DNA from: a virus
IMG/VR virus record: IMGVR_UViG_3300050821_002998
Coordinates: 1 to 43,892 of that record
DNA: 43,892 bases
Reading direction: 5' to 3' (one strand)
In this document: in pieces, positions 1,324 through 27,655 of the stretch
Numbering within the stretch: the stretch's first letter is position 1
Layout: each line of letters begins with the position of its first letter
The notes under the pieces: generated by a model
The model's database searches: none
What the model was told of the DNA's origin: nothing
The model's input: the letters and a program-made list of their open reading frames with translations, nothing else
Position numbers and translations under genes: made by a program

Positions 1324-1953
1324 TTAGACGCCAGCCGTACCGGCAGACAGTTCGTGGTTGTTGATCTTGACGAGCCACTTGGCAAACGGCCCGTAGGCGT
1401 TGTCTTGGCGTCGTGCAAGGCCGAGGATACGCACCTGAAGGGTGGCCGTGACCGCTGCACCCACATTGCTGAGCTGCCAACCGCTGTAGTAGCCGTTGTT
1501 TGCACCAGCGACGAGATTGGCATTGAGGCCCACCGAAGTGGTAGCGGTAAAAGCCGTACCCGTACCCACTTCCTGAACCTCGAAGACCACGTTCGGGTCA
1601 TCGACCACCATCACGTAGTAATCCGTCGCCTGAGCACCGGACGGACGGATGATCTGATTCAGGTTGTTGACGTTGAACAGGCCGCCTTCCGGATTGAGCT
1701 GGAAGCCGCCCGTGTTCGCCGTACCGAGGCCCACAATCACGCCGCGGATGGGATTACCCGTACCTGCGGATGCGAGGGTGATGCCGGGGACACCATTGGT
1801 GTCTGCATTCTGGATGGAGCCCACCGGATCACCGACCGCATACGCATTCGTATCAGCAGCCGGAATCCAATAGATATTGGCCTGCCCGTTGTATGCCGCC
1901 GAAACGCGGTCATTAACGGGGGAAAGACCACTAGGCCGATTTGCATTAGCCAT
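1324..1953 (-). CDS. Capsid decoration-like structural protein (209 aa)
   Basis: The protein is beta-rich, with glycine, alanine and threonine throughout. Segments such as GQANIYWIPAADTNAYAVGD and a C-terminal LGLARRQDNAYGPFAKWLV resemble a family of phage head-associated proteins encoded next to coat genes. It has no transmembrane or catalytic motif. The ATG at 1953 follows GAGGA at a good distance. It lies 11 bases upstream of the major capsid gene, so the two are probably co-translated in quantity. A decoration or cement role is inferred from position. Confidence 0.65.
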   Translation of the reverse strand: MANANRPSGLSPVNDRVSAAYNGQANIYWIPAADTNAYAVGDPVGSIQNADTNGVPGITLASAGTGNPIRGVIVGLGTANTGGFQLNPEGGLFNVNNLNQIIRPSGAQATDYYVMVVDDPNVVFEVQEVGTGTAFTATTSVGLNANLVAGANNGYYSGWQLSNVGAAVTATLQVRILGLARRQDNAYGPFAKWLVKINNHELSAGTAGV

Positions 1954-1975
1954 AAGGATTCCTCAAAACAAGGGG

Positions 1976-2485
1976 TTATTTGGGTTTGAAAAGGGAGTTG
2001 CTCGTGCCGGTGTAACGCTTGCCTACATCATTACCTGTCTCGCCAGCCCCACCCTTACCTACCGTACCCCCATTGAGGGCGTCTGCTGTATCTGCGTTCT
2101 GTTTCTCGACCAAGCCATTCTTGTAGTCCCAAATGTAATCAGGGCATTTCATCAGGTACATGCGGGGGGTCTGGCCCGACTCATCCGCACCCTCACCACT
2201 CACTACACTGATGTTGCTACCAAGGTCTGTGCTGCCGTGCGAGAGGGCGTCGCCTGCCAGATCGAAGTTGTTGATATCCAGCTCATCGGTTCGGACGTGC
2301 GTATATCCAGCTTGACGCGCTTGGGCTAGACGTCCGGGAGTACCGCGAAACCAGTGCAAGTGGTGGCCCGGCAGTTCCGGGGTTTCCAGTCGCATCTGAC
2401 CGCCCGTCATGGGCTTATAGCCCTTGGGCAGTTCCAACTTATCGTTGGCTGGATTGGTCTTCTTATCCTGAGCAGTTGCCATCAT
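1976..2485 (-). CDS. Hypothetical head-operon protein (169 aa)
   Basis: This protein is hydrophilic and charged, with no recognised domain. A central stretch (LPGHHLHWFRGTPGRLAQAR, then AGYTHVRTDEL) looks folded. The C-terminal third is glycine/asparagine/threonine-rich and probably disordered. The start region reads ATGATGG and overlaps the stop of the scaffold-like gene. The second ATG (2482) has better spacing from GGGAG than the first (2485), so the product may begin MATAQ. Translational coupling to the scaffold gene is likely. Function unknown; a head-assembly role follows only from its neighbours. Confidence 0.7.
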   Translation of the reverse strand: MMATAQDKKTNPANDKLELPKGYKPMTGGQMRLETPELPGHHLHWFRGTPGRLAQARQAGYTHVRTDELDINNFDLAGDALSHGSTDLGSNISVVSGEGADESGQTPRMYLMKCPDYIWDYKNGLVEKQNADTADALNGGTVGKGGAGETGNDVGKRYTGTSNSLFKPK

Positions 2486-3348
2486 TCCTCTCCCACAAGT
2501 TCAGCGTAATAGTCTTGCCAATCGGCCTTGGTCTTGAACTTCTTGCCTGGGCCTACGAAGTCATCGGACTGGTTGTTGCAGATCTTCTTGGCCTCTGCAC
2601 TCAACCGATCGAAAGGACGACTATTGCTGTTAGCCCGACCGCCCGTGTTACCGCCCTCTACCTTGCTAGTCGTCTTGGTTGGCGTAGCCTTACCGCCCTC
2701 CTTTTCCTCCAAGAGCTTCATGCACTTAGCCATGAATTCCTTGGCGGGAGACGTGTCTCCCCGACGCCGCAACTTGTTGCCGATAGCGAGAAGTTCATCG
2801 ATACGGTCCTGATCTTCCTCGGTCTGAGGATTCTTGAACCAAGAGTTCTCCTCGGCATCCCGCCAGCGGATGAATTCCGGGTCAAATCCAGCATCAGGAT
2901 CAGGGAGGTCTTTCTCGGGAGCGGCAGCCTTACTTTCCTTGGCCTGCTGTTGCAGGTCAGTCAACTTGTCTTCCAAGGCAATCTCAGTATCAACATCACC
3001 TTGGTCACGCGCTGCCTTAATTTCACGGCGCAATTGCTGCACCGCATCTTTCACCTTACTCTCGGTCTGCTCGTCATATACTTTCTTGAGAGCAGTTACA
3101 GCCTTATTAGTCGCGTCAAGCGATTTCTTAAGACTTTCTACTTCTTTTTGACTCTTGTCAAGAGCTTCTTTGTAGCGCTTAGAGTTAGCTTGAACAATCG
3201 GTAGAATGTTCTTACCACGTTCTACGAAGTCTTCTGCGCTGATCCAACGAGACTTGTCTCCTTGGAACTCTTCTTGGGGAACCCAGCCCATGCCACGAGC
3301 TTCCGACTCCACATCAGGCGACTCAACGCCGGCATCGATATCACTCAT
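2482..3348 (-). CDS. Capsid scaffolding-like protein
   Basis: This 288-residue, highly charged protein has a long predicted coiled coil near residues 45-160 (heptad-like stretches such as SLKKSLDATNKAVTALKKVY). A disordered Gly/Asn/Ser linker and a lysine-rich C-terminus follow. That architecture, lying between portal and coat genes, matches podovirus scaffolding proteins. I chose the ATG at 3348, which has GAGG nine bases upstream, over an in-frame start eight codons earlier. Its first eight bases overlap the end of the GroES-like gene. Many codons in the first half end in T, unlike the C-ending codons of nearby genes. Scaffold function is inferred from composition and order. Confidence 0.75.
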   Translation of the reverse strand: MSDIDAGVESPDVESEARGMGWVPQEEFQGDKSRWISAEDFVERGKNILPIVQANSKRYKEALDKSQKEVESLKKSLDATNKAVTALKKVYDEQTESKVKDAVQQLRREIKAARDQGDVDTEIALEDKLTDLQQQAKESKAAAPEKDLPDPDAGFDPEFIRWRDAEENSWFKNPQTEEDQDRIDELLAIGNKLRRRGDTSPAKEFMAKCMKLLEEKEGGKATPTKTTSKVEGGNTGGRANSNSRPFDRLSAEAKKICNNQSDDFVGPGKKFKTKADWQDYYAELVGEE

Positions 3349-3703
3349 TGGTTGTTTCCTCGTCTGACTCAATCTGCGCGAATACGTCGCGGTCGTTCAC
3401 GTAGCGATACTGTACGTCATCCGTGATGCCTCGTGCCATGAAACCTGCATAGGCCGCGATCATCACATGATCACCGGGTTTGCAGCGAGGGCCATAGCCC
3501 GCTTCGATCTCCTCGGCAAAGGCTGCCGGGCCCACCTCCACGACAATGGCTCGCTGATCCACTGTCTGCATCTTCGTTTCAACATCATCGGGGATATAGA
3601 TCAAACTATCTTTCTTAGCCGGCTTGTAGGGTTTGACGAGAATGGCTCGTCCTACGGGATGCAAGCGACTCTTATTCTCCGGGTTCCACCATGCCTTACT
3701 CAT
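3341..3703 (-). CDS. GroES/Cpn10-like co-chaperonin
   Basis: The 120-residue product follows the Cpn10 pattern. It has an opening strand (LHPVGRAILVKPYKPAKKDS), a loop SLIYIPDDVE in the place of the GroES mobile loop, then AIVVEVGP and a KPGDHVMI strand, and a closing DVFAQIE. In T4, the phage co-chaperonin gp31 replaces GroES with host GroEL during coat folding; the same role is inferred here because the gene sits directly before scaffold and coat genes. The ATG at 3703 has GAGG six bases upstream, so the earlier in-frame TTG is unlikely to be the start. Its end overlaps the scaffold start by eight bases. Confidence 0.8.
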   Translation of the reverse strand: MSKAWWNPENKSRLHPVGRAILVKPYKPAKKDSLIYIPDDVETKMQTVDQRAIVVEVGPAAFAEEIEAGYGPRCKPGDHVMIAAYAGFMARGITDDVQYRYVNDRDVFAQIESDEETTNE

Positions 3704-3971
3704 TATTCGCCTCAACTAGTTGGTCAAATTGTAGGTCTAGTACTTCTCGTAGTGCATCGCAGTAGCCGTGGGCTCCTGCCTGCCTGATGGCTAATTCTTC
3801 CACCGTGGGGGCAGCAAAGCCCCCATTGGCCCACATCTCCTTACGGGCCTCCCGCTCCTGGTGCAGGTAATCCCGGAGGAGCTTGGTTACCGGGTGCTCC
3901 CCCCATTGCAGCCATAGATCCTTGTCCTCCAGCAGCTTCAGCCGCAGCCGGTCCCGTTCCGCCTTGTCCAT
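3696..3971 (-). CDS. Small hypothetical protein overlapping the portal C-terminus (91 aa)
   Basis: This is an acidic, helical protein of unknown function (starts MDKAERDRLRLKLLEDKDLW). A strong ribosome site (GGAGG, five bases before ATG) marks the start at 3971. Unusually, its first 131 bases also encode the Gly/Ala/Pro-rich end of the portal protein in another frame. It overlaps the downstream GroES-like gene by eight bases. Charged helical proteins of about 90 residues directly after the portal are frequent in podoviruses; none of its residues suggests an enzyme. Confidence 0.75.
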   Translation of the reverse strand: MDKAERDRLRLKLLEDKDLWLQWGEHPVTKLLRDYLHQEREARKEMWANGGFAAPTVEELAIRQAGAHGYCDALREVLDLQFDQLVEANNE

Positions 3972-5976
3972 CCTCTCCTCCCATCATGCCTTGCGTGTTT
4001 TGAATCTGGTCCGTCAACATGCCGTGCATCATCTCCAGAGCCTTCATCTGGGACTCGAATTCGGCAACCTTCTGGGCTGCCTGTGCCCCGTCTGATTCTT
4101 TGAGTACCTGATCTGCCTGCGCTTGGAGCAGGGTGATCTTCGCCATATTCATACGGCGCTGCTCGTACAGCGAGGACAACCATTGCAGGCGTTGCCACTC
4201 CAGCTTAGAGTTGGCGATCTGCTGCTTGATCATTTCCACCTGTACCTTCTCGGAAGGCTTCGGCGGCGGGGCACCCTTGGTGCCCACGTAGATCTTCTGG
4301 TAGTCCTGAATCTTGATGGCCTTGAGCAACCGGATATTGACTTCATCCTGGTTGTATAGGGGATTGCCCTTGGCTATCTGGGCAAGCGTCTGGGCCTGCG
4401 CCAGCCGTGCGCGGTCCGACATGATGTTGGGGTCCGCCGCCGGGACGACCGAGGACGGGTCGCCGAGGTAATCTGCTCGGGAGATGTAGTCCGTGCTGCC
4501 AGCAAAGTACGTCTTGTCCGGACTCATGTGCAGAGCATTGAGCTGATAGATCTTCTTGAACTCATTCTTCATACTGCGCCAAATGCGCTTGAAGATAGCT
4601 GCGTAGACCTTCTGGCCCTGCTCCAACATGGACTGACTGGTCTCTGCGGGCGTGTTCTGCCCCGGATTACCGCCCGTCGAGATGTCCACCGACCCCGACA
4701 CCTTCTCCGTGTAATTGATCAGGAGGGTGAGGAGCTGAAACATCACATTGCTGGGTTCCCGAACAGGCATAGGGAAAATAGACTTACGAAGATCGTCACC
4801 AGTGCTATCAACACGATTCCACTCAAAAGGCGAGAAATTATAAACACCGCCCCGGATTTTGGCTCCCCGTCCAAGGAAACCACCAGCCGTGTTAGCCATA
4901 GTACCAGCGTCAAAAAGCTGATTGATAGCAGAATTGGTAGACTCATTGAGGGGCCCTAGCAGCACACCAAAACCAACATCGTAGATACCACCGTCAGGGC
5001 TAGGAATAAAGTGATACTTTGTAAAATATTCACTAGCCCGGATACGGATAATGTCACCTGACTCATTACGCTCCACATCTTCTTCGCGATCAAAACGGCA
5101 GACAATACGCCAGACGTAATGAGAGTCGTGATCGATAGAAACAATATAAGGTTCAGCATAGCCGTCTCCATCGAGGTCCAGAGAGACGTGCTGCTCTAGG
5201 ACAGTGAAGGGAGTGCGCTCATCGGGCATGGGCTCAAGAATACCCGTGCGGTTGTCTACTGCCTGCTCGTAGGAGTTCTGGTTGCGCATCGGAGCATCGG
5301 CGGTGTACCACGGCTCCTTGGTTGCATCGCGGAAGGTGCCTTCCATCATGCGCTCATGGAGTTTGTTCCGGCTGAAGGGAATGATGTGGGTCTTGACGCC
5401 ACATTCCTCTACGGATCGTGCCCAGTAGTTGATCACCAGATCTTTGGCTAGGACCAGCTCACTCACGTTCCGACCTAGGCCAGCAGAGTAGTACGACTTC
5501 TTGAAGGCACAGCCCACAATGGGGATATGCAGGAGAGCTCGGTCCGTTTCCTCTTCCCACGACTCATCCTGCTCAAGGAGCTGCCAGGACATATGAGTAC
5601 TTACGCGAGAGGCACGCTCGGTCTTGCTGCCATCCGGATCGGGGCCAACTACGCGGCAATTGACGAGGTCGGGGGCCTGCACGATGGCCGGATAGGCGCG
5701 GGAATGAAACTGAAGAGCAGCGATGGTGATGAGAGGGAAGGCGACATTACTGCATCCCGGCCAAGGGAAGGTCTTATCCTTCTGGACCTGCATAGCGAGA
5801 TCCATCGCGGCTTCCGTGCGACGGAGCCAAGGCTCCCGCGACTGGAGGTCCGTCTTGAAGAAGTCCCATACCTTTTCCCCGATGACCTTGAGGTCGCCAT
5901 CGTCAAACCGGTCACACAAGTTCGGTGAATTGATCGTATCTGCGTCGATCTTGATATGCTTACTGAGATTCAACAT
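3841..5976 (-). CDS. Portal protein
   Basis: The 711-residue portal forms the dodecameric ring through which DNA enters the head and to which the terminase docks. The N-terminal third contains SREPWLRRTEAAMDLAMQVQ and FPWPGCSNVAFPLITIAALQ, a pattern I recognise from large podovirus portals. A helical, glutamine-rich stem/barrel segment lies near residues 560-650, followed by a Gly/Ala/Pro tail. The tail overlaps the next gene by 131 bases. I see no good ribosome site before the ATG at 5976. Within the gene, about 4745-5165 uses T-ending codons, while both flanks prefer C/G-ending codons, which suggests a recombined patch. Confidence 0.93.
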   Translation of the reverse strand: MLNLSKHIKIDADTINSPNLCDRFDDGDLKVIGEKVWDFFKTDLQSREPWLRRTEAAMDLAMQVQKDKTFPWPGCSNVAFPLITIAALQFHSRAYPAIVQAPDLVNCRVVGPDPDGSKTERASRVSTHMSWQLLEQDESWEEETDRALLHIPIVGCAFKKSYYSAGLGRNVSELVLAKDLVINYWARSVEECGVKTHIIPFSRNKLHERMMEGTFRDATKEPWYTADAPMRNQNSYEQAVDNRTGILEPMPDERTPFTVLEQHVSLDLDGDGYAEPYIVSIDHDSHYVWRIVCRFDREEDVERNESGDIIRIRASEYFTKYHFIPSPDGGIYDVGFGVLLGPLNESTNSAINQLFDAGTMANTAGGFLGRGAKIRGGVYNFSPFEWNRVDSTGDDLRKSIFPMPVREPSNVMFQLLTLLINYTEKVSGSVDISTGGNPGQNTPAETSQSMLEQGQKVYAAIFKRIWRSMKNEFKKIYQLNALHMSPDKTYFAGSTDYISRADYLGDPSSVVPAADPNIMSDRARLAQAQTLAQIAKGNPLYNQDEVNIRLLKAIKIQDYQKIYVGTKGAPPPKPSEKVQVEMIKQQIANSKLEWQRLQWLSSLYEQRRMNMAKITLLQAQADQVLKESDGAQAAQKVAEFESQMKALEMMHGMLTDQIQNTQGMMGGEDGQGGTGPAAAEAAGGQGSMAAMGGAPGNQAPPGLPAPGAGGP

Positions 5977-18270: not shown

Positions 18271-18414
18271 ATGTGGATATTGCACTACCCGGACAGTTAC
18301 GGGTTTTACGGACCTTTCGATACCCAAGAAGCTGCGAAGGCTTGGGCAATGGGCTACTCTAACTATGGTTGGTATGTCATCCAATTGACTGACCCGAAGG
18401 TGATGGAGCGATGA
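18271..18414 (+). CDS. Small W-x-GPF family protein (47 aa)
   Basis: The product (MWILHYPDSYGFYGPFDTQE, then A-rich helix and GWYVIQL) has the pattern aromatic strand, Gly-Pro-Phe, Asp/Thr-x-x-x-Ala helix, aromatic strand. Two genes inside the split polymerase (23358 and 23555) share it. The ATG at 18271 follows AAGGA by nine bases, just downstream of the structured element. Short proteins of this pattern are common in phage accessory regions, with unknown function. Confidence 0.7.
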   Translation: MWILHYPDSYGFYGPFDTQEAAKAWAMGYSNYGWYVIQLTDPKVMER

Positions 18415-18735: not shown

Positions 18736-19707
18736 ATGACAAACCTAACTCGCAACAGTCAGTACTTCGATAACACGAAGATTTCCTGCTACAAGGAGTG
18801 CCCTCGGAAGTACTTCCTCCGTCATGTGATGCACTGGACGGTTGATTACTCCCGCAAGGCTCCTGCCCTGGTGTTTGGTGGGGCATGGCATGAGGGCATG
18901 GACGCTATCTGGTCCTCCCAAGGGGAGCCCAACGAGGACAAGGTAGAGCGGGCTGTCTCAGCCTTCCGGACGCACTGGGAGGAGAATGAGTACACCTTCA
19001 AGTTGTCCCTCGAAGAGGCGGAAGAGCTGGGCGCTCGTACCCCAGGGGTAGCCCATGAGATGTTCTTCTCCTACTGCGTAGCCCGGGAGAGGTTGCTGGA
19101 GGAGGCTACGGTGCATAGCATCGAGCAGCCCATCGCCATGCCCTTCCCCGAGCTGGAAGACACGTGGTACGTGGGTAAGTTGGACAAGGTGTTCAGTTGG
19201 AATGGCTACCAGCACATCATGGAGCACAAGACCACCACCGCCTACGCTATCAAAGGGCAGTTCCAGCCCGACTGGGTGGAGTCCTGGTCATCTGCCAGCC
19301 AAGTAAAAGGGTATCAGATGGTGGGATCGGTGTACTATCCCAAGCTCCAGGATGTGTGGATTGATGGTGCGCTGGTGCACAAGAAGATCCACGATGCCTT
19401 TAAGTTGGTGCCGGTGAGTCATAGCTGGCCCCTGTTGCAGGACTGGATTGGCGACACGAAGCAGTGGATCACTCGCATCCAGGATGATTTTAATAGCTAC
19501 GTACTAGACCGGGGCCTAAAGTATGGAGCCTTCCCGAGGAATGAAGACCAGTGCTTCGGCAAGTACAGCAAGTGTCCTTTCCTCTCGATCTGTAGTACAA
19601 CTGCGGACCCTACTCAATTGGATAGTGTGCCAATTGGATTCCGAGTTGAGAAGTGGGAGCCATTCTCCGAGCTAGGCCTAGAAAGGTTGGTGAAAGATGC
19701 AGACTGA
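18736..19707 (+). CDS. Cas4/RecB-like PD-(D/E)XK nuclease with probable Fe-S cluster
   Basis: The 323-residue protein begins with SCYKECPRKYFLRHV (about 17-31) and FGGAWHEGMDA (His52). The nuclease core is GKLDKV (Asp150) and IMEHKTT (Glu163, Lys165), then QVKGY (Gln189, Tyr193). Cysteines at 273, 280 and 286 near the C-terminus plus an N-terminal Cys (18 or 22) fit the 4Fe-4S clamp of Cas4/AddB-type exonucleases. It probably degrades or processes DNA ends for recombination with the Sak4-like ATPase downstream. It is not linked to CRISPR here. Confidence 0.85.
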   Translation: MTNLTRNSQYFDNTKISCYKECPRKYFLRHVMHWTVDYSRKAPALVFGGAWHEGMDAIWSSQGEPNEDKVERAVSAFRTHWEENEYTFKLSLEEAEELGARTPGVAHEMFFSYCVARERLLEEATVHSIEQPIAMPFPELEDTWYVGKLDKVFSWNGYQHIMEHKTTTAYAIKGQFQPDWVESWSSASQVKGYQMVGSVYYPKLQDVWIDGALVHKKIHDAFKLVPVSHSWPLLQDWIGDTKQWITRIQDDFNSYVLDRGLKYGAFPRNEDQCFGKYSKCPFLSICSTTADPTQLDSVPIGFRVEKWEPFSELGLERLVKDAD

Positions 19708-20249: not shown

Positions 20250-21033
20250 GGATGCCCATGCGTCCGCCGTCCATCGCTTCTTAGTGCTGGGGGATACGGG
20301 AGCTGGGAAGACCACCCAGTTCCTCACCCTCCCCGGGAAGAAGTTCGCCTACCTGTTCGACCCCAACGCCTTGCTGAGCCTGCGGGGATACGATGTGGAC
20401 TACGAAGAATTCCTACCCGACCGCTTGAACTTGAACGTCGTGAGTTTGGCAAGGAAGGGCGATAGCGTAACGAAGCACCAGAATGACCTGTTCATGGACT
20501 GGCAGAAGGACTTCGAGGATAAGTTGAATTCAGGCTTCTTTGATGGGTATGACAACATCCTCATGGACAGCGCCACCACGCTGCTGGACCTGATCATGGA
20601 TCGCATCCTGACCATCAATGGTCGCCCGGGGCAGTGGCCCCAGCAGGACGACTACGGTCCACAGATGAACGTCTTCACGAATGTGTGCCGGCAGTTGACT
20701 GCGCTGGGCAAGACGGTCTACATGACCGGCCACCTGGAGGTGCGTCAGGACGACAAGACGAAGCGCATCCTTCGAGGTCCCATGATGACCGGTCGCCTCA
20801 AGACGAAAGTGCCTCTCCTCTTCAGTGACATCTTCATTGCGGATGTGGAGGCAGACAGCAACGGAAAGGTTAACCATCGATTCCAGACGGTGCCGGACCG
20901 AATGACCACGACGGTTCGAACAAGCATAAAAGGATTGGGGGCTTTTGAAGATGTCACATTGGACTTCAAGAAACCTCTGGAAGGGCAAGGACTGGGGCGT
21001 CTTCTTGCTCTGGAAAAAGAGGGTAAACTCTGA
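20236..21033 (+). CDS. Sak4-like RecA-fold ATPase
   Basis: The 265-residue protein has Walker A GDTGAGKTT (19-27), FDPN (41-44), Walker B YDNILMDSATT (about 105-115) and a sensor-like strand VYMTGHLE (161-168). This is the RecA-core layout of phage Sak4-type proteins, thought to promote single-strand annealing or recombination together with a phage SSB. The OB-type gene at 21317 and the nuclease at 18736 support that role. The ATG at 20236 is the start consistent with the motif position; the open frame upstream overlaps the 97-aa gene. Confidence 0.8.
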   Translation: MPNSKDAHASAVHRFLVLGDTGAGKTTQFLTLPGKKFAYLFDPNALLSLRGYDVDYEEFLPDRLNLNVVSLARKGDSVTKHQNDLFMDWQKDFEDKLNSGFFDGYDNILMDSATTLLDLIMDRILTINGRPGQWPQQDDYGPQMNVFTNVCRQLTALGKTVYMTGHLEVRQDDKTKRILRGPMMTGRLKTKVPLLFSDIFIADVEADSNGKVNHRFQTVPDRMTTTVRTSIKGLGAFEDVTLDFKKPLEGQGLGRLLALEKEGKL

Positions 21034-21316: not shown

Positions 21317-21736
21317 ATGTTTCTCGAATTTGATCTTGACGATGTGAAGGAAGCCGGTCCCGCACCGACCGGTAAGTATGAGTTGCAGATCACGGGCGCT
21401 GTGGAAGCCGAGACGAAGGCTGGTGCTCCGATGCTGGTGGCAACGCTGGGCTTCACCGATACTTCGCTGCACTACAACACCTTCAAGCACTACATCACTC
21501 TTCCGGTCGAAGGCGATGAGAAGGCTGAGTTCAAGAAGCTCATGCTGAAGCGTTTCCTGGCGGCGTTTGACGTGCCGTTCCGCCCGGGCATGGATTCGGC
21601 CACGCTGACCGTGAACATGATTGCCCAGACGGCCTTCGTGGAAGTGAAGCTCAATGAGCCCAATGCTAATGGGTATGTGAGCAACAGCATCAACCTGCCC
21701 CGTCTGCCGGATGAGGGTCTGGGCCGTCGCCGTTAA
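21317..21736 (+). CDS. Putative ssDNA-binding/recombination mediator, OB-fold type
   Basis: The 139-residue protein (TGKYELQITGAVEAETKAGA, LHYNTFKHYITLP, KKLMLKRFLAAFDVPF, then AFVEVKLNE) follows the pattern of DUF669-like phage proteins, regarded as single-stranded DNA-binding or recombination-mediator proteins. It would coat ssDNA for the Sak4-like ATPase and the polymerase. A ribosome site lies eight bases before the ATG. A strong terminator follows directly, which suggests that it closes a transcription unit made in excess. Confidence 0.7.
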   Translation: MFLEFDLDDVKEAGPAPTGKYELQITGAVEAETKAGAPMLVATLGFTDTSLHYNTFKHYITLPVEGDEKAEFKKLMLKRFLAAFDVPFRPGMDSATLTVNMIAQTAFVEVKLNEPNANGYVSNSINLPRLPDEGLGRRR

Positions 21737-22188: not shown

Positions 22189-22351
22189 GACTGTTCCTAA
22201 AGACGCTAGAGTCCTGTGTACTGGTCCTAGCGGAGTTCATGTAGCCCACTACCACCAATTTAGTGATGGCCGCTGGGGAATGCGTTCGGGCTGGTATGTA
22301 ACGACCAATTGCACACATTGGATGCCGTTGCCTGAACCACCGAAGGAATGA
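22169..22351 (+). CDS. DUF551-like small protein (60 aa)
   Basis: The product begins MDWQPIETVPKDARVLC and ends THWMPLPEPPKE. This W-x-P-I-E-x-x-P start and the hWMPLPEPP end are the signature of the DUF551 family, very common in phages and unassigned in function. GGGGA lies five bases before the ATG at 22169. The stop overlaps the start of the UDG/exonuclease gene. Confidence 0.8.
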   Translation: MDWQPIETVPKDARVLCTGPSGVHVAHYHQFSDGRWGMRSGWYVTTNCTHWMPLPEPPKE

Positions 22352-23355
22352 CGATGTTCTTCCCGGAACCTAAAAAGCAGGAAGTCCCGCCAGCCGGCAA
22401 TCCCCAAGCCAAGATCGCCATCGTGGGTGACTTCAGCAATGCCTTCGACTTGCGCGACGGGCGACCATTCTCCCATTACGCCGGGCAGATCCTCGAATCC
22501 TGCCTGCACCAAGCCGGCCTGATCCGGGGAGAGGTCTACCTCACCAACGTTATCAAAGAAAGCAGCACACTACGGGGGAAATACTACGATGAGACGAGAG
22601 GAAAATTTACGCCACTTGGTATGGAATACGTGGAACGCCTGCGAGAGGAACTTAGCGTATGTGGGAGCAACGTTATTGTTGCTGCTGGTGCTGCTGCTAT
22701 GTCTGCTCTGTGCAGCACTCATCGTGTCAGCCAGTATCGCGGTTACCTGTTTGAGTCCACTCTACTTCCTGGCAAGAAGGTCATACCGATACATCACCCG
22801 GCGCAAGCGCTCCGAGGCATGTACACCTATCGCTACCTCATTGCGGCCGACCTGTCCAAAGCCAAGGAAGAATCCAAATTCCCCGAGCTACGTCGACCCC
22901 ACCGGACCCTGACGTGGTCGTATTCGGATATCGGGGAAGCGCTGTACTGGCTGGACTACTACGCCCGACAAGAGATAGTGGGCTTCGATATTGAGGTACT
23001 AAACTATGAGGTATCCTGCATCAGTATGTCGTCGTCGCCGGATTTGGCTCACGTCTTCCCTATTGCGGATCGATGGATTGCTGATGAGGAAGCATCCCTC
23101 TGGCGCGGCATTCAGCGAGCACTTGGAAATCCTGAGAGCAAGAAAGTCGTACAAAATAGTATGTTCGACGTACCTTTTCTCCTTACACGATGCGGTATTG
23201 TCGTACGAGGAACCATCCATGACACCATGGTTGCACATTCCATTTGTTACCCGGAACTACAAAAAGGACTCGGCTTCCTCGGCTCGGTTTACTGCGGTTC
23301 GCAGGAGTACTGGAAGGACACGGTAAAATTCAACGATATCAAGTCAGAGAGCTAA
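22348..23355 (+). CDS. UDG-like / 3'-5' exonuclease protein (N-terminal part of a split DNA polymerase)
   Basis: Residues 22-175 resemble the uracil-DNA glycosylase superfamily (VGDFSNAFDLRDGRPFSHYA, VYLTNVIKE, PIHHPAQALR). The usual catalytic GEAPG is changed to GDF, so glycosylase activity is doubtful. Residues 205-325 carry exonuclease motifs I (FDIEVLN, Asp214/Glu216) and II (QNSMFDVPF, Asn270/Asp274). The frame stops at KFNDIKSES, where family A exonucleases normally continue to motif III; that motif (YSALD) opens the polymerase gene at 23995. The better-spaced start may be the ATG at 22354. It probably works as a separate subunit with the polymerase. Confidence 0.8.
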   Translation: MTMFFPEPKKQEVPPAGNPQAKIAIVGDFSNAFDLRDGRPFSHYAGQILESCLHQAGLIRGEVYLTNVIKESSTLRGKYYDETRGKFTPLGMEYVERLREELSVCGSNVIVAAGAAAMSALCSTHRVSQYRGYLFESTLLPGKKVIPIHHPAQALRGMYTYRYLIAADLSKAKEESKFPELRRPHRTLTWSYSDIGEALYWLDYYARQEIVGFDIEVLNYEVSCISMSSSPDLAHVFPIADRWIADEEASLWRGIQRALGNPESKKVVQNSMFDVPFLLTRCGIVVRGTIHDTMVAHSICYPELQKGLGFLGSVYCGSQEYWKDTVKFNDIKSES

Positions 23356-23357
23356 CA

Positions 23358-23555
23358 ATGTATAACCCCTACGAAATCTTTGAGTGGACTCCTGAAATTC
23401 AACTGGAAACTCCAGCGGTGGATTCTCCTGGCTGGTGGTATTGGCAGAATGATGTGGATGGCCTATTTGGTCCGTTTGAAACGGAGGCGGAAGCTTTAGA
23501 CCATCGACTCAAAGAGTATTGGGCTATCTGTAGAGCCATGAAGGAAACTATCTAA
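23358..23555 (+). CDS. Small W-x-GPF family protein inserted in the polymerase locus (65 aa)
   Basis: The protein contains PGWWYWQNDVDGLFGPFETE followed by an alanine-containing helix and WAI. It shares the aromatic strand / GPF / acidic helix pattern with the genes at 18271 and 23555. It starts two bases after the exonuclease stop, with GAGAG upstream, and its stop overlaps the next start (TAATG). It is part of the 640-bp stretch that separates the two polymerase halves. Confidence 0.7.
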   Translation: MYNPYEIFEWTPEIQLETPAVDSPGWWYWQNDVDGLFGPFETEAEALDHRLKEYWAICRAMKETI

Positions 23556-23767
23556 TGAACCCTGCATACGATTCCTACAACTATCCCTATATTGGTCCCT
23601 ATTACAGCTTCGATTCCCTCGACAGTTGGCAGAAGCGCTGGTACTTCATCTGGGACAATGTGCGCTTTGGGCCCTACGATTCCCAGCAGGAGGCTCAGTA
23701 CAACTTTGACTCTCTGCAAGATAGGAAAGAGGCAGACTCATGCAGCGAGGCATACCGACATGAATAG
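23555..23767 (+). CDS. Second small W-x-GPF/Y family protein (70 aa)
   Basis: This tyrosine-rich protein begins MNPAYDSYNYPYIGPYYSFD, followed by KRWYFIWDNVRFGPYDSQQE, which matches the family core (aromatic strand, G-P-F/Y, helix). It is probably a diverged duplicate of its neighbour at 23358. Start and stop both overlap adjacent genes by a few bases, so the three insert genes read as a compact cassette. Confidence 0.7.
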   Translation: MNPAYDSYNYPYIGPYYSFDSLDSWQKRWYFIWDNVRFGPYDSQQEAQYNFDSLQDRKEADSCSEAYRHE

Positions 23768-24011
23768 TGCTGAGCTGTGGAAGTCGGGCCACGAACCCAT
23801 CAGTGACATATTGCATGACGCCACTACCCGGGATCTGTGCTTCGAGCAGAACGGGGATGGGCAGTTCTTCTACTACATCAAGGAGGGGATTCGGATCATC
23901 TATACGAGTGACCGATTCGAGGACTCCGAGGAATGCGGTAGGGACGGTTTCCGTATGCTGCGGGAACTCCATGAGGAAGATCCACTAAGGCACGATGATG
24001 GCAATGGATGA
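23760..24011 (+). CDS. Third small protein of the polymerase insert (83 aa)
   Basis: GAGG lies nine bases before the ATG at 23760. The product (SGHEPISDILHDATTRDLCF, then QFFYYIKEGIRIIYTSDRFE) is acidic with a strand-rich middle and has no GPF motif. Its end overlaps the polymerase start by 17 bases, so polymerase translation may be coupled to it. Function unknown. Confidence 0.65.
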   Translation: MNSAELWKSGHEPISDILHDATTRDLCFEQNGDGQFFYYIKEGIRIIYTSDRFEDSEECGRDGFRMLRELHEEDPLRHDDGNG

Positions 24012-26466
24012 AAAGTTCTTCCGTTACTCCGCACTAGACAGTGCGTGCATGATGGAGATCTACGAGAAGTTCTGGCCCACCGTAGGGCAGGGCTACCAAG
24101 CCACCTACGACATGACCATGAACCTCATGCCGGTGCTTGCCTTCATGCAGACCAAGGGCATCGCGGTGGATCACACCAAGCTTGAGGAGACGCGCAAGGA
24201 GGTGCTCCAGCGAGCAGCGGAGAAAGAAGCTGAGCTGCATGAGCTGTGCGGGTTCCCCCTCAACGTAAACAGTGGGAAGCAGGTAGGCGAGTACTTCTAC
24301 ATCACCCTCGGCTTGCCCCCGATCTTGAAGCCGAAGACCAAGGCCCTCACCACCGACGACCTTGCGATGCAGCGTCTCGTGCGAGGCACGGCCAAGAACC
24401 CCGGCCGACCGGAGGCGAAACTCGTCCAGGAAATCCGGGGCCTGAAGAAGTTGTACTCAACCTACCTGTCCATCGAGTTTGATGCAGACAACCGGATGCG
24501 CGGATCCTACAACCCTCGCGGAACCATGTACGGTCGGCTGAGCAGCAGCAAGACGATCTTCGGCACGGGCATGAACATGCAGAATCTGCCCCCGGACTTC
24601 AAGAAGTTCCTGGTGGCGGACCCCGGCTATGTGCTGATCGAGTTTGACAAGAGGCAGGCTGAGTGGGTGGTGGTGGCCTACGCCAGCGATGACAGCAACA
24701 TGATTCGAGCCATCGAGCAGGGATTGGATGTGCATGCCTACACGGCAAGCCTCATGTTCCATGTGCCGATGGAAGTAGTGGCGCATGAAAATGATGTTAT
24801 CGGGCACGTAACAAATCCGGACCAGATCAAGGAACTCCGGACGACCGACGACATCCTACGGCAGCACGACACCGCAATCTGGCCGAGGTCTATGACGCTC
24901 CGTCAATGCGGTAAGAAGTGCATGCCCGGAGACACTGAGGTGCTTACGCCTTCGGGATGGGTTCGTTTGGATGAGCATCAACCTTGGCAGGCTATTGCCC
25001 AGTGGGACGCGGGGAAGATCAGTTTCGTCCGTGCTTCGGCCATGAATGTATATGACCACGAGGGGCCGCTAAACACTTTTGAGGCTAACCACGTCCATCA
25101 GATAACGACGGATGAGCACCGTCTTTTGGTTGTTAATGATCGAACCAAAAAGCAAGAAGTGGTGCTGGCTAAGGACTTTGAGCAGCGTATGCACTGGCAT
25201 CTACCCACCTCGGGTAAGTACTCTGGGGAGACCAACTCCCTTACACTTACTCCCGGCATTATGCAATTGTTGGTTGCCATCCAAGCGGATGGGTCTATTG
25301 ATCCTTACGATAACCTGATACTTCGGGTAGATAAGGCGCGAAAGGTAAAGCGAGCTGAGGAGATTCTGGCAAAGTTAGGCTTGCGATATACCCGAACCAA
25401 CCGGGGATTTTTCATTCATAGCTCAAATTGGGCTGCTCGGGTTATTGCGCAGTTGTTGGGAACTAGGAAAGAGTTTGGTCCTTACCTATTGTCTCAGAAT
25501 CAGGAAGCTCTTGAGGCATTCATCGCAGAGATTCCACATTGGGATGGGCATATTCCTACGGGTCAGTATTTCACTACCGTGGCAGGCAATGCTCATTGGG
25601 TTCAGACGATTGCTCATATTACTGGTTTCCGAGCTACCGTTACCGAGCGTCCTCCACATGCGGCTGGCTTTGGGAAGAAGAATCTCTTCTGGGTGAAGAT
25701 TGGGAAAGCTTCGGGTACATCGCTTGTAAGTATTCAACAGGGAACCACTGAATACACTGGCAAGGTGTACTGTCCTACTGTTCCTTCGGGATTTTTCCTA
25801 GTACGTTCAAAGGGAAAGATCAGTGTCACAGGCAACAGTAACCATGGCCTGAACTACGACGAAGGCCCAAACACCTTTGCCCTGACCAACGAGATTGAAA
25901 TTGGTGAGGCGAAGCGCATCATCGCCATGTATCACGAAGGCTACCCCTCCATCCGGAAGTGGTATGACCACGTCCAACGCCAACTCAAGGCTAGCCGTAC
26001 GCTAGAGAACTGCTTTGGTCGCCGCGTGAAATTCATGGGCGAGTGGGGTACCGATCTGTGGAAGTCCTCCTACAGCATGATTCCCCAAAGTACCGTGGTG
26101 GATTCATTGAATAGCGGAATGGTCAAGGTCTACAATGACCCCCTCCTCGCTAGGGAGTACAACATCGATATCCTGGCGCAGGTACATGACTCCATTCTCG
26201 TGCAAGTACCCATCGAGGTCATGCAAGACGAGACGAAATACGATGAACTAATGCGCCGCGTGAATGACTACACCAGTCCCACGCTGAGCTACAACGGCAA
26301 TGACTTCAGGATCGCTACCGATGCAAAAGTTGGCTTCAATTGGGGTGGGAAGCACAAGGTGCACAACACTGAGGGTATGCGGGATTGTAAATCGTACGAT
26401 GATGTCCGTGCGCTTCTACGGCTAAGGGGAGTTGCGCATGACACGGGAAGTAAGCAACTGGCTTGA
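23995..26466 (+). CDS. Family A DNA polymerase with intein (C-terminal part of a split polymerase)
   Basis: The 823-residue precursor opens with exonuclease motif III (YSALD, 11-15). Polymerase motifs follow: A around IEFDKRQAEW (Asp218), B split as RQCGKK | SNHGLNY by a 306-residue intein (309-614), and C as AQVHDSILVQ (His731/Asp732). After splicing the protein would be 517 residues. AAGG before the ATG cluster gives its own initiation site; the start may be the first, second or third Met of MMAM. It replicates phage DNA, probably with the UDG/exonuclease protein encoded 640 bp upstream. It overlaps the DUF3987 gene by 29 bases. Confidence 0.92.
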   Translation: MMAMDEKFFRYSALDSACMMEIYEKFWPTVGQGYQATYDMTMNLMPVLAFMQTKGIAVDHTKLEETRKEVLQRAAEKEAELHELCGFPLNVNSGKQVGEYFYITLGLPPILKPKTKALTTDDLAMQRLVRGTAKNPGRPEAKLVQEIRGLKKLYSTYLSIEFDADNRMRGSYNPRGTMYGRLSSSKTIFGTGMNMQNLPPDFKKFLVADPGYVLIEFDKRQAEWVVVAYASDDSNMIRAIEQGLDVHAYTASLMFHVPMEVVAHENDVIGHVTNPDQIKELRTTDDILRQHDTAIWPRSMTLRQCGKKCMPGDTEVLTPSGWVRLDEHQPWQAIAQWDAGKISFVRASAMNVYDHEGPLNTFEANHVHQITTDEHRLLVVNDRTKKQEVVLAKDFEQRMHWHLPTSGKYSGETNSLTLTPGIMQLLVAIQADGSIDPYDNLILRVDKARKVKRAEEILAKLGLRYTRTNRGFFIHSSNWAARVIAQLLGTRKEFGPYLLSQNQEALEAFIAEIPHWDGHIPTGQYFTTVAGNAHWVQTIAHITGFRATVTERPPHAAGFGKKNLFWVKIGKASGTSLVSIQQGTTEYTGKVYCPTVPSGFFLVRSKGKISVTGNSNHGLNYDEGPNTFALTNEIEIGEAKRIIAMYHEGYPSIRKWYDHVQRQLKASRTLENCFGRRVKFMGEWGTDLWKSSYSMIPQSTVVDSLNSGMVKVYNDPLLAREYNIDILAQVHDSILVQVPIEVMQDETKYDELMRRVNDYTSPTLSYNGNDFRIATDAKVGFNWGGKHKVHNTEGMRDCKSYDDVRALLRLRGVAHDTGSKQLA
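24919..25836 (+). mobile_element. Intein with LAGLIDADG-type endonuclease inside polymerase motif B
   Basis: The intein starts at Cys309 (CMPGDTEVLTPSGW, splicing block A). It has block B ITTDEHRLLV (Thr372, His375), and LAGLIDADG-like motifs LLVAIQADGSI (Asp432) and FIAEIPHWDG (Asp517). It ends with block F/G YTGKVYCPTVPSGFF...SVTGN (Asn614), followed by Ser615. The penultimate residue is Gly instead of the usual His, which some inteins tolerate. The 306-residue length and intact motifs suggest active splicing and possibly homing. Codons ending in T are more frequent than in the flanking extein, consistent with separate acquisition. Confidence 0.9.
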
Positions 26467-27655
26467 CTCCTATCTTGAGTATTCCAGCAACACCGAATCT
26501 CCGACCTCTTACCATCTGTGGTGTGGGATCTCCGCGATTGCCGGGGCACTCCAACGAAAGGTCTACCTCCATTGGGGTGTAGGCCAAACGCTCTATCCCA
26601 ACTTATATATTGTATTGGTGGGCCCCGCTGGTAGAACCCGTAAGGGTGTAGCCATTGGCATCGCGAAGGATCTGTTGCGCGAACTCACGAATGTGAAAAT
26701 CGCACCGGAGTCCGCGTCAGGCCAGCAGGCCATGACCCTTGTGATGAAGGAGGCGTACGGGAACTTCATCGACCCCACGGACGGGCAGAGTAAGCTGCAC
26801 TGCTCCACGACAGTCTTCAGCGAGGAGCTATCGGTATTCCTCGGACAGGGCAACATCGCCTACTTGGCGAACCTAACGGACTGGTATGACTCCAAGGAGG
26901 AATGGGAGTATCAGTCGGTGGGACGGGGCAAGGATAAGTTGAATGGGGTGTGCTTGAATTTCCTCGGAGGTACAGCACCAGACTGGATTCAATCCATGAT
27001 CCCCCAGGAAGCGGTGGGTGGCGGCTTCACCAGTCGAGTGATCTTCGTGGTGGAGGAGAAGAAGGGGAAGATTGTTCCCGAGCCTGTGATGACTGCTAGG
27101 GAAATCCAACTGCGTAAGCAATTGAGGAATGACCTCGAACGCATCAACAAGATGGCGGGAGAGATGACCATGAACGATGGGTGTAGGAGGAAGTATGTCA
27201 ACTGGTACAAAAGCGAGTCCGCTGCTGCCGAGGCCGGACACCCTGCAATCGATGACGCAAGATTTGCTAGCTATTGCGAGCGGCGTGCAACACACCTACG
27301 AAAGCTACTCATGGTGGTGTCAGCAGCCCGAGGGGACGACCTCATACTCACCGAAGAAGATTTCGATAGAACTCTTAGATTTCTTGAGGCAGCAGAGCGA
27401 AACATGTCAAAGACTTTCGGGGGCTTTGGCAAATCACGTACGAGCGATGCAACGGAAACCATCAAGAACTTCATCTGCGGGATGCGACACACTACCCGAG
27501 GGCTCGTACTCCAACGTTATTACCTCGACGTGGACGCCCCTACCCTCTCCGGAATCGAACAAACCCTAGAGCAGATGGGCTGCATCAAGACAGAGCCGTA
27601 CATAGTGGATGGGAAGATGGATAAGAAGTATTACTGGGTTGGCGAAGCCGCCTAA
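26438..27655 (+). CDS. DUF3987-type helicase/primase-like ATPase
   Basis: The 405-residue protein starts at the ATG with GGAG six bases upstream. The N-terminus (YHLWCGISAIAGALQRKVYL) and a P-loop-like VGPAGRTRKG (about 61-70) are typical of DUF3987 proteins. These accompany phage primases or act as helicases at replication forks. FSEELSVFLGQ follows as the probable Walker B/second acidic motif. A winged-helix-like C-terminus may bind DNA. No separate DnaB-type helicase or primase was seen, so this may be the main replication ATPase. The classical GKS/T is altered to RKG, so activity needs testing. Confidence 0.75.
   Translation: MTREVSNWLDSYLEYSSNTESPTSYHLWCGISAIAGALQRKVYLHWGVGQTLYPNLYIVLVGPAGRTRKGVAIGIAKDLLRELTNVKIAPESASGQQAMTLVMKEAYGNFIDPTDGQSKLHCSTTVFSEELSVFLGQGNIAYLANLTDWYDSKEEWEYQSVGRGKDKLNGVCLNFLGGTAPDWIQSMIPQEAVGGGFTSRVIFVVEEKKGKIVPEPVMTAREIQLRKQLRNDLERINKMAGEMTMNDGCRRKYVNWYKSESAAAEAGHPAIDDARFASYCERRATHLRKLLMVVSAARGDDLILTEEDFDRTLRFLEAAERNMSKTFGGFGKSRTSDATETIKNFICGMRHTTRGLVLQRYYLDVDAPTLSGIEQTLEQMGCIKTEPYIVDGKMDKKYYWVGEAA

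What the first reader, a model, noticed from the sequence alone, without database searches (positions are those of the whole stretch)
22348..26466. DNA polymerase split inside its exonuclease domain by three small genes
Exonuclease motifs I (FDIEVLN) and II (QNSMFDVPF) are on one protein that ends at 23355. Motif III (YSALD) opens the next protein at 23995. The break falls exactly where a continuous family A enzyme would run on. Each half has its own ribosome site, and the 640 bp between them is filled by three overlapping small genes. Proofreading would need the two proteins to assemble. The insertion may be a cargo event into a gene that tolerated splitting.
Basis: partly seen in the sequence, partly recalled or inferred. 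Interest (0 to 1): 0.8.

Follow-up and report, generated by a model that had tools for sequence, protein, structure and literature searches.

The report
Phage DNA polymerase made as two proteins
This phage makes its DNA-copying enzyme as two separate proteins, cut in the middle of the error-correcting part, and dozens of related phages keep the same cut while swapping small genes in and out of the gap; the two halves probably reassemble into one working proofreader, which would be a natural test case for how an essential enzyme survives being cut in two.

Summary
A UDG-exonuclease-polymerase (family A) is encoded as two proteins broken between exonuclease motifs II and III, with three small genes between. 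Public contigs gave 134 relatives: 51 have this break, 40 break just before polymerase motif A instead, 40 are unbroken, 2 break elsewhere. All testable motif I-III catalytic residues are kept in every exo-broken pair, although motif III sits on the other protein, so a composite proofreading site is very probable. One origin of the exo break is rejected (p=0.0001): at least two independent breaks fell in the same loop, which is disordered in the model of an unbroken relative. It is not an intron: gaps range from 0 to 1,678 nt and no Rfam family matches. The small genes do not keep the gene split: 7 of 39 representative pairs have none, and near relatives carry different ones. The upstream gene's 3' end usually holds a ribosome site for whatever gene follows. 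One relative shows an HNH endonuclease gene inserted there with a replacement 3' end.

The parts
22348..23355 (+). Polymerase subunit N: UDG-like domain plus exonuclease domain with motifs I and II, lacking the last exonuclease helix (start probably 22354)
   Evidence: AF2 model pLDDT 91.9
22387..22818 (+). UDG-superfamily (family 4 / UdgX-like) domain, residues 14-157
   Evidence: Pfam E=8e-17; Foldseek best hits UdgX and family 4 UDGs
22984..22998 (+). Exonuclease motif I FDIEV (D214, E216)
   Evidence: D and E in 50 of 50 exo-broken rows with data
23152..23169 (+). Exonuclease motif II QNSMFD (D274)
   Evidence: N and D in 51 of 51
23325..23355 (+). 3' tail of N (FNDIKSES): disordered in the model; in 45 of 51 exo-broken contigs it encodes a Shine-Dalgarno match for the next cistron (weak or absent in the window itself)
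23358..23555 (+). Cargo ORF s1, 65 aa, GPF-motif small protein, unknown function
23555..23767 (+). Cargo ORF s2, 70 aa, resembles s1; homologues in the gaps of L086 and L087
23760..24011 (+). Cargo ORF s3, 83 aa; homologues in the gaps of the 7 nearest relatives; overlaps the start of subunit C
23995..26466 (+). Polymerase subunit C: exonuclease motif III helix, thumb, palm, fingers, with an intein
24025..24039 (+). Exonuclease motif III YSALD (Y11, D15), completing the exonuclease site in trans
   Evidence: Y and D are the only invariant columns of the 20 examined, 51 of 51
24646..24648 (+). Polymerase motif A Asp (IEFDK); in the sister clade the gene is broken just before this strand
24919..25836 (+). 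306-aa intein inside polymerase motif B (RQCGKK / C...TGN / SNHGLNY)
   Evidence: homologous to mycobacteriophage primase inteins, E about 1e-25; absent in other aligned relatives

Best explanation
The two ORFs are two subunits of one family A phage replicase. N supplies the UDG-like domain and most of the 3'-5' exonuclease fold (motifs I and II). C supplies the last exonuclease helix (motif III Tyr/Asp) and the polymerase, after its intein splices out. They associate non-covalently, so the proofreading site is built from two chains. The break lies in a flexible loop that tolerates a chain end. Shown: the sequence, the clade-wide stable split, the invariant active site across the break, the lack of intron signature, cargo turnover. 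Inferred: physical assembly and activity; translational coupling (N's 3' end usually carries a ribosome site, with TAATG or TGA overlap, serving the next cistron, so genes can be added or removed at the stop codon while C is still translated); and origin by homing-endonuclease insertion, with later loss or replacement of the endonuclease. Confidence refers to a two-subunit enzyme with a composite exonuclease; the origin step alone I put near 0.5.
For: Same break in 51 contigs. In exo-broken rows D, E (50/50), D, Y, D (51/51) are all kept, and in the 20 columns around motif III only Y and D are invariant. Unbroken relatives align through the junction. In the AF2 model of unbroken L186, residues 356-365 are one of two internal loops under pLDDT 50, and the break maps there. 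AF2 of window N is confident to about residue 325 with a disordered tail. All exo-broken rows as one clade: rejected, p=0.00012. The N tail has a Shine-Dalgarno match in 45/51 versus 27% within N genes; cargo 3' ends 43/67 versus 26%; gapless pairs overlap as TAATG or GTGA. L182: the HNH ORF's last 30 nt match the sister phage's N end 29/30, while L182's own N end matches 22/30; HNH by PHROG, E=6e-31. Cargo swaps begin at the N stop in L090/L091 and L086/L087. Split phage enzymes that assemble are documented: Aeh1 NrdA, phage 25 gp43 (PMC2988022).
Against: No protein-level data; the two-chain complex could not be modelled (single chains only). The window's own N tail has no good Shine-Dalgarno match. 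The synonymous lysine codon in the tail is only mildly biased (30 AAG of 40 versus 25 expected, p=0.17). A control at the matching linker of unbroken and motif-A-broken genes is already about 43% (30/69), though that mapping was imprecise and itself recovered only 26/48 for the broken set. Only 4 of 51 exo gaps hold an HNH gene, so the endonuclease origin rests on few cases.
Confidence: 0.82

Rival explanations
1. The gap is a self-splicing intron carrying small ORFs, and a continuous polymerase is made (the reading offered for MEP401 and Mic1 in the literature).
For: Phage polymerase genes do carry group I introns; published authors suggested this for similar gaps (PMC10580990, PMC7156551).
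Against: No Rfam group I or II match in the window or in 11 relatives. Gaps run from 0 to 1678 nt with unrelated content; 0-9 nt gaps cannot hold an intron. N ends in a conserved stop and C has its own start; C starts have a ribosome site in 39 of 51.
Confidence: 0.03
2. The exonuclease is a relic: the split abolished proofreading, and only C acts as an exo-minus polymerase.
For: Known exo-inactive phage PolA variants exist (divPolA1, PMC11348598).
Against: All catalytic residues are kept on both sides in every exo-broken pair across deep divergence; neighbours of Y and D vary.
Confidence: 0.1
3. The parts are joined after translation by trans-splicing (a split intein) or during translation by stop-codon readthrough.
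For: An intein is present in C; L047 has the halves in frame, separated by a single stop.
Against: N has no intein half at its end; the intein lies far away at motif B and is complete; most gaps are out of frame or hold complete genes.
Confidence: 0.04

Closest known systems
Genes in pieces of T4-related phages: Aeh1 nrdA split by mobE; gene 43 split into 43A/43B in Aeromonas phages 25 and 44RR (PMC2988022)
   Same: A contiguous essential replication gene split into two cistrons, with an HNH or GIY-YIG endonuclease nearby in some; products shown to assemble and work.
   Different: Ribonucleotide reductase or family B polymerase, not family A; here the gap holds changing non-endonuclease genes, and the break divides the exonuclease active site. 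Not sequence members.
Split DNAP of Methylophilales phage MEP401/402 (PMC10580990)
   Same: Family A phage polymerase in two ORFs with a small ORF between; its break is the pre-motif-A site used by our sister clade.
   Different: No UDG domain, complete exonuclease on the first ORF, break in the palm rather than the exonuclease; distant lineage.
Split polymerase gamma-like gene of cyanophage Mic1 (PMC7156551)
   Same: Two ORFs with a 298-bp gap, break at polymerase motif A.
   Different: Different polymerase branch; called an intron; exonuclease motifs I-III on one ORF.
Caulobacter phage Kuura genes 029-026 (OQ067476)
   Same: Break between exonuclease motifs II and III with two small ORFs between; not mentioned by its authors.
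   Different: Belongs to a separate clade with its own break.
E. coli DNA polymerase I Klenow fragment
   Same: Closest solved fold to an unbroken relative (8oo6 TM 0.80 on target).
   Different: One chain, no UDG domain.

Membership tests
Phage family A DNA polymerase (UDG-exo-pol, PHROG 17) | UDG-superfamily domain fused to exonuclease | tested here: met
   PF03167 and PF01612 on N
Phage family A DNA polymerase (UDG-exo-pol, PHROG 17) | Exonuclease motifs I-III with catalytic acids | tested here: met
   motif III on the second protein
Phage family A DNA polymerase (UDG-exo-pol, PHROG 17) | Polymerase motifs A, B, C | tested here: met
   motif B interrupted by an intein
Phage family A DNA polymerase (UDG-exo-pol, PHROG 17) | Single polypeptide | tested here: not met
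   two ORFs; 40 relatives are single-chain
Endonuclease-associated phage gene in pieces (Aeh1 nrdA type) | Contiguous in relatives, two cistrons here | tested here: met
Endonuclease-associated phage gene in pieces (Aeh1 nrdA type) | Homing endonuclease gene at the break | tested here: not met
   None in the window; HNH genes in 4 of 51 exo gaps and remnants in motif-A gaps
Endonuclease-associated phage gene in pieces (Aeh1 nrdA type) | Products assemble into active enzyme | not testable with these tools
   needs expression and assay
Group I/II intron-interrupted polymerase gene | Conserved intron RNA core | tested here: not met
Intein (in subunit C) | Splice-junction residues: N-terminal Cys, C-terminal Asn, then Ser | tested here: met
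   C...TGN then S
Intein (in subunit C) | Homology to known inteins and clean absence in relatives | tested here: met
Intein (in subunit C) | Homing endonuclease domain | tested here: inconclusive
   No Pfam or NCBIfam match; a LAGLIDADG-like stretch VAIQADGSI by eye

The most novel reading that the evidence does not exclude
The junction inside the polymerase gene is a maintained gene-exchange site: a loop that tolerates a break, a ribosome site built into the upstream gene's last codons, and a stop/start overlap let the phage take in or lose whole genes in the middle of its replicase operon while a two-chain proofreading site persists. The same solution arose at least twice at the exonuclease loop, and separately before motif A.
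Probability: 0.4. Interest if true: 0.75.

Novelty: new variant of a known kind. Interest (0 to 1): 0.62.

Why it matters
It gives a family with a large natural series (unbroken, broken at the exonuclease, broken at the palm, with and without cargo) in which to test how an essential multi-domain enzyme becomes a stable two-subunit enzyme. It suggests that published 'introns' in phage polymerase genes (MEP401, Mic1) may be true splits. It also offers ready-made split sites for engineering a two-part proofreading polymerase.

Tried and rejected
Intron: Rfam at gathering and lax thresholds gave nothing. DNA-level relatives of the window in the phage collection: none. Conserved tail IKDES as a protein interface: its model is disordered, and the pattern tracks a ribosome site instead. 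Synonymous-codon test of that idea: not significant. Target-like direct repeats around cargo in general: only L182 is clear. Cargo as one mobile family: 85 clusters from 147 ORFs, 65 of them singletons. One origin of all exo breaks: rejected; joining the L073/L198 pair with the main clade was not rejected (p=0.31), so I count at least two origins, not three.

Full report
Observation. The window (an IMG/VR virus record of 43,892 bases) encodes a 335-aa protein at 22348-23355 and an 823-aa protein at 23995-26466, with three small overlapping ORFs between them. The first holds a UDG-superfamily domain and most of a DnaQ-like exonuclease; the second holds the family A polymerase. Against the PHROG 17 polymerase profile the two proteins cover 477-798 and 804 onwards, so the break removes almost nothing.

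Relatives. Scans of viral contigs, phage records and one genome collection were merged into 134 contigs with classifiable genes. Fifty-one are broken between exonuclease motifs II and III like the window, 40 are broken immediately before polymerase motif A, 40 are unbroken, two (L006, L141) are broken after motif III at the exonuclease/polymerase boundary, and one is undetermined. The motif-A break (for example ..FKGFIVAG stop, then M-L-EFDLAGAEW) is at the same place as in the unrelated polymerase of phage MEP401.

Tree. A careful maximum-likelihood tree of 82 representatives puts the 19 motif-A-broken rows in one clade, and the exo-broken rows in three places: a main clade of 32, a pair L073/L198, and a clade around Caulobacter phage Kuura. 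Holding all exo-broken rows together is rejected (AU p=0.00012); holding the pair with the main clade is not (p=0.31). Hence at least two independent breaks at the same site. Unbroken rows sit in both basal groups, so the unbroken state is most simply ancestral (inference from the tree).

Composite active site. In exo-broken rows the motif I Asp and Glu (50 of 50 with data), motif II Asp (51), and motif III Tyr and Asp (51) are all present. Around motif III only those two columns of 20 are invariant. A motif III residue on the polymerase chain has no known role except to complete the exonuclease site, so its retention argues that N and C assemble.

Why there. The AF2 model of unbroken relative L186 (pLDDT 89.7) has two internal stretches under pLDDT 50 beyond its N-terminal region, 356-365 and 549-554; the window's break maps to 355-364 (between invariant K354 and Y374). 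The unbroken model matches Klenow polymerase. The model of window N (pLDDT 91.9) folds confidently without the motif III helix and has a disordered tail.

The gap. Exo-break gaps range from 0 to 1678 nt (median 361); motif-A gaps from -10 to 3133. Cargo is diverse: 147 ORFs in 85 clusters, 65 of them singletons, including HNH endonucleases (L061, L095, L108, L182), a RecD-like helicase, GH25 and M15 endolysins, ThyX, a dATP/dGTP pyrophosphohydrolase and a subtilase-like ORF (the subtilase by eye). Seven of 39 representative exo-broken pairs have no cargo, and cargo presence changes 7 times on the tree. Closely related phages differ in cargo from the N stop codon onwards: L090/L091 (N genes 95% identical) and L086/L087 (82%), in which L087 has one extra gene. 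No Rfam family matches the gaps.

How translation is kept. The tail of N has the recurring sequence I-K-D/E-E-S/A, which in DNA is often a Shine-Dalgarno sequence about 12 nt before the stop: 45 of 51 have a match of 4 nt or more in the last 19 nt, against 27% within N genes. Gapless pairs overlap as TAATG or GTGA; with cargo, the first cargo start lies at -10 to +3 of the stop in 33 of 34 main-clade cases. Cargo 3' ends also carry the signal (43 of 67 versus 26%). The window itself lacks a good match, a codon-bias test was not significant, and an approximate linker control is already about 43%, so this part is likely rather than shown.

Origin. In L182 the HNH ORF ends with about 13 codons of the polymerase N gene: its last 30 nt match the sister phage L228's N gene 29/30, while L182's own N gene ends with a diverged replacement (22/30); the two N genes are otherwise 71% identical. 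This is best read as an endonuclease gene inserted near the N gene's 3' end together with a substitute tail. HNH zinc-finger remnants occur in some motif-A gaps. I infer that such insertions opened or exploited the breaks, and that the endonucleases were later replaced. They are found in 4 of 51 exo gaps, so this is a lead.

Comparison with the known. Phage genes in pieces with functional reassembly are documented (Aeh1 nrdA; gene 43 of Aeromonas phages; PMC2988022). Family A splits before motif A are published for MEP401/402 and Mic1, where introns were suspected. Searches of the open-access library found no report of a polymerase broken inside the exonuclease domain; subscription papers are not covered. 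Verdict: a new variant of a known kind, well supported by comparison, with assembly and activity still to be shown.

Noticed in passing
24919-25836: Intein within polymerase motif B, with homologues in mycobacteriophage primases and Staphylococcus phage ribonucleotide reductases; relative L056 has an apparent insertion at the same motif.
   Followed up: partly
L013, L020, L021, L027, L124 and about 35 other contigs: Sister clade whose polymerase is broken exactly before the catalytic Asp strand of motif A, with gaps up to 3.1 kb holding endolysins, ThyX and other full-size genes.
   Followed up: yes
23358-23767 and 18274-18414: Small proteins with a W(Y/F)..GPF(D/E)T..EA motif occur twice in the gap and once elsewhere in the window; similar ones occur in gaps of L036, L086, L087, L049.
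   Followed up: partly
L182, gap ORF 1: HNH endonuclease ORF whose last 13 or so codons look like the ancestral 3' end of the polymerase N gene: a snapshot of an insertion with a replacement tail.
   Followed up: yes
L087 and L091, first gap ORF: Homologous 140-180 aa ORFs with a GSR..(S/T)D(D/E)DYL motif resembling a nucleotidyltransferase, at the same spot in two subclades; no Pfam match.
   Followed up: partly
L006 (MW202554) 1727-4364 and L141: A third break position: after motif III, between exonuclease and polymerase domains.
   Followed up: partly
18736-19707, 20287-21033, 21317-21736, 26450-27655: Rest of the replication module: PD-(D/E)XK exonuclease, Sak4-like ATPase, DUF669 SSB-like protein, DUF3987 primase-like protein.
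   Followed up: no
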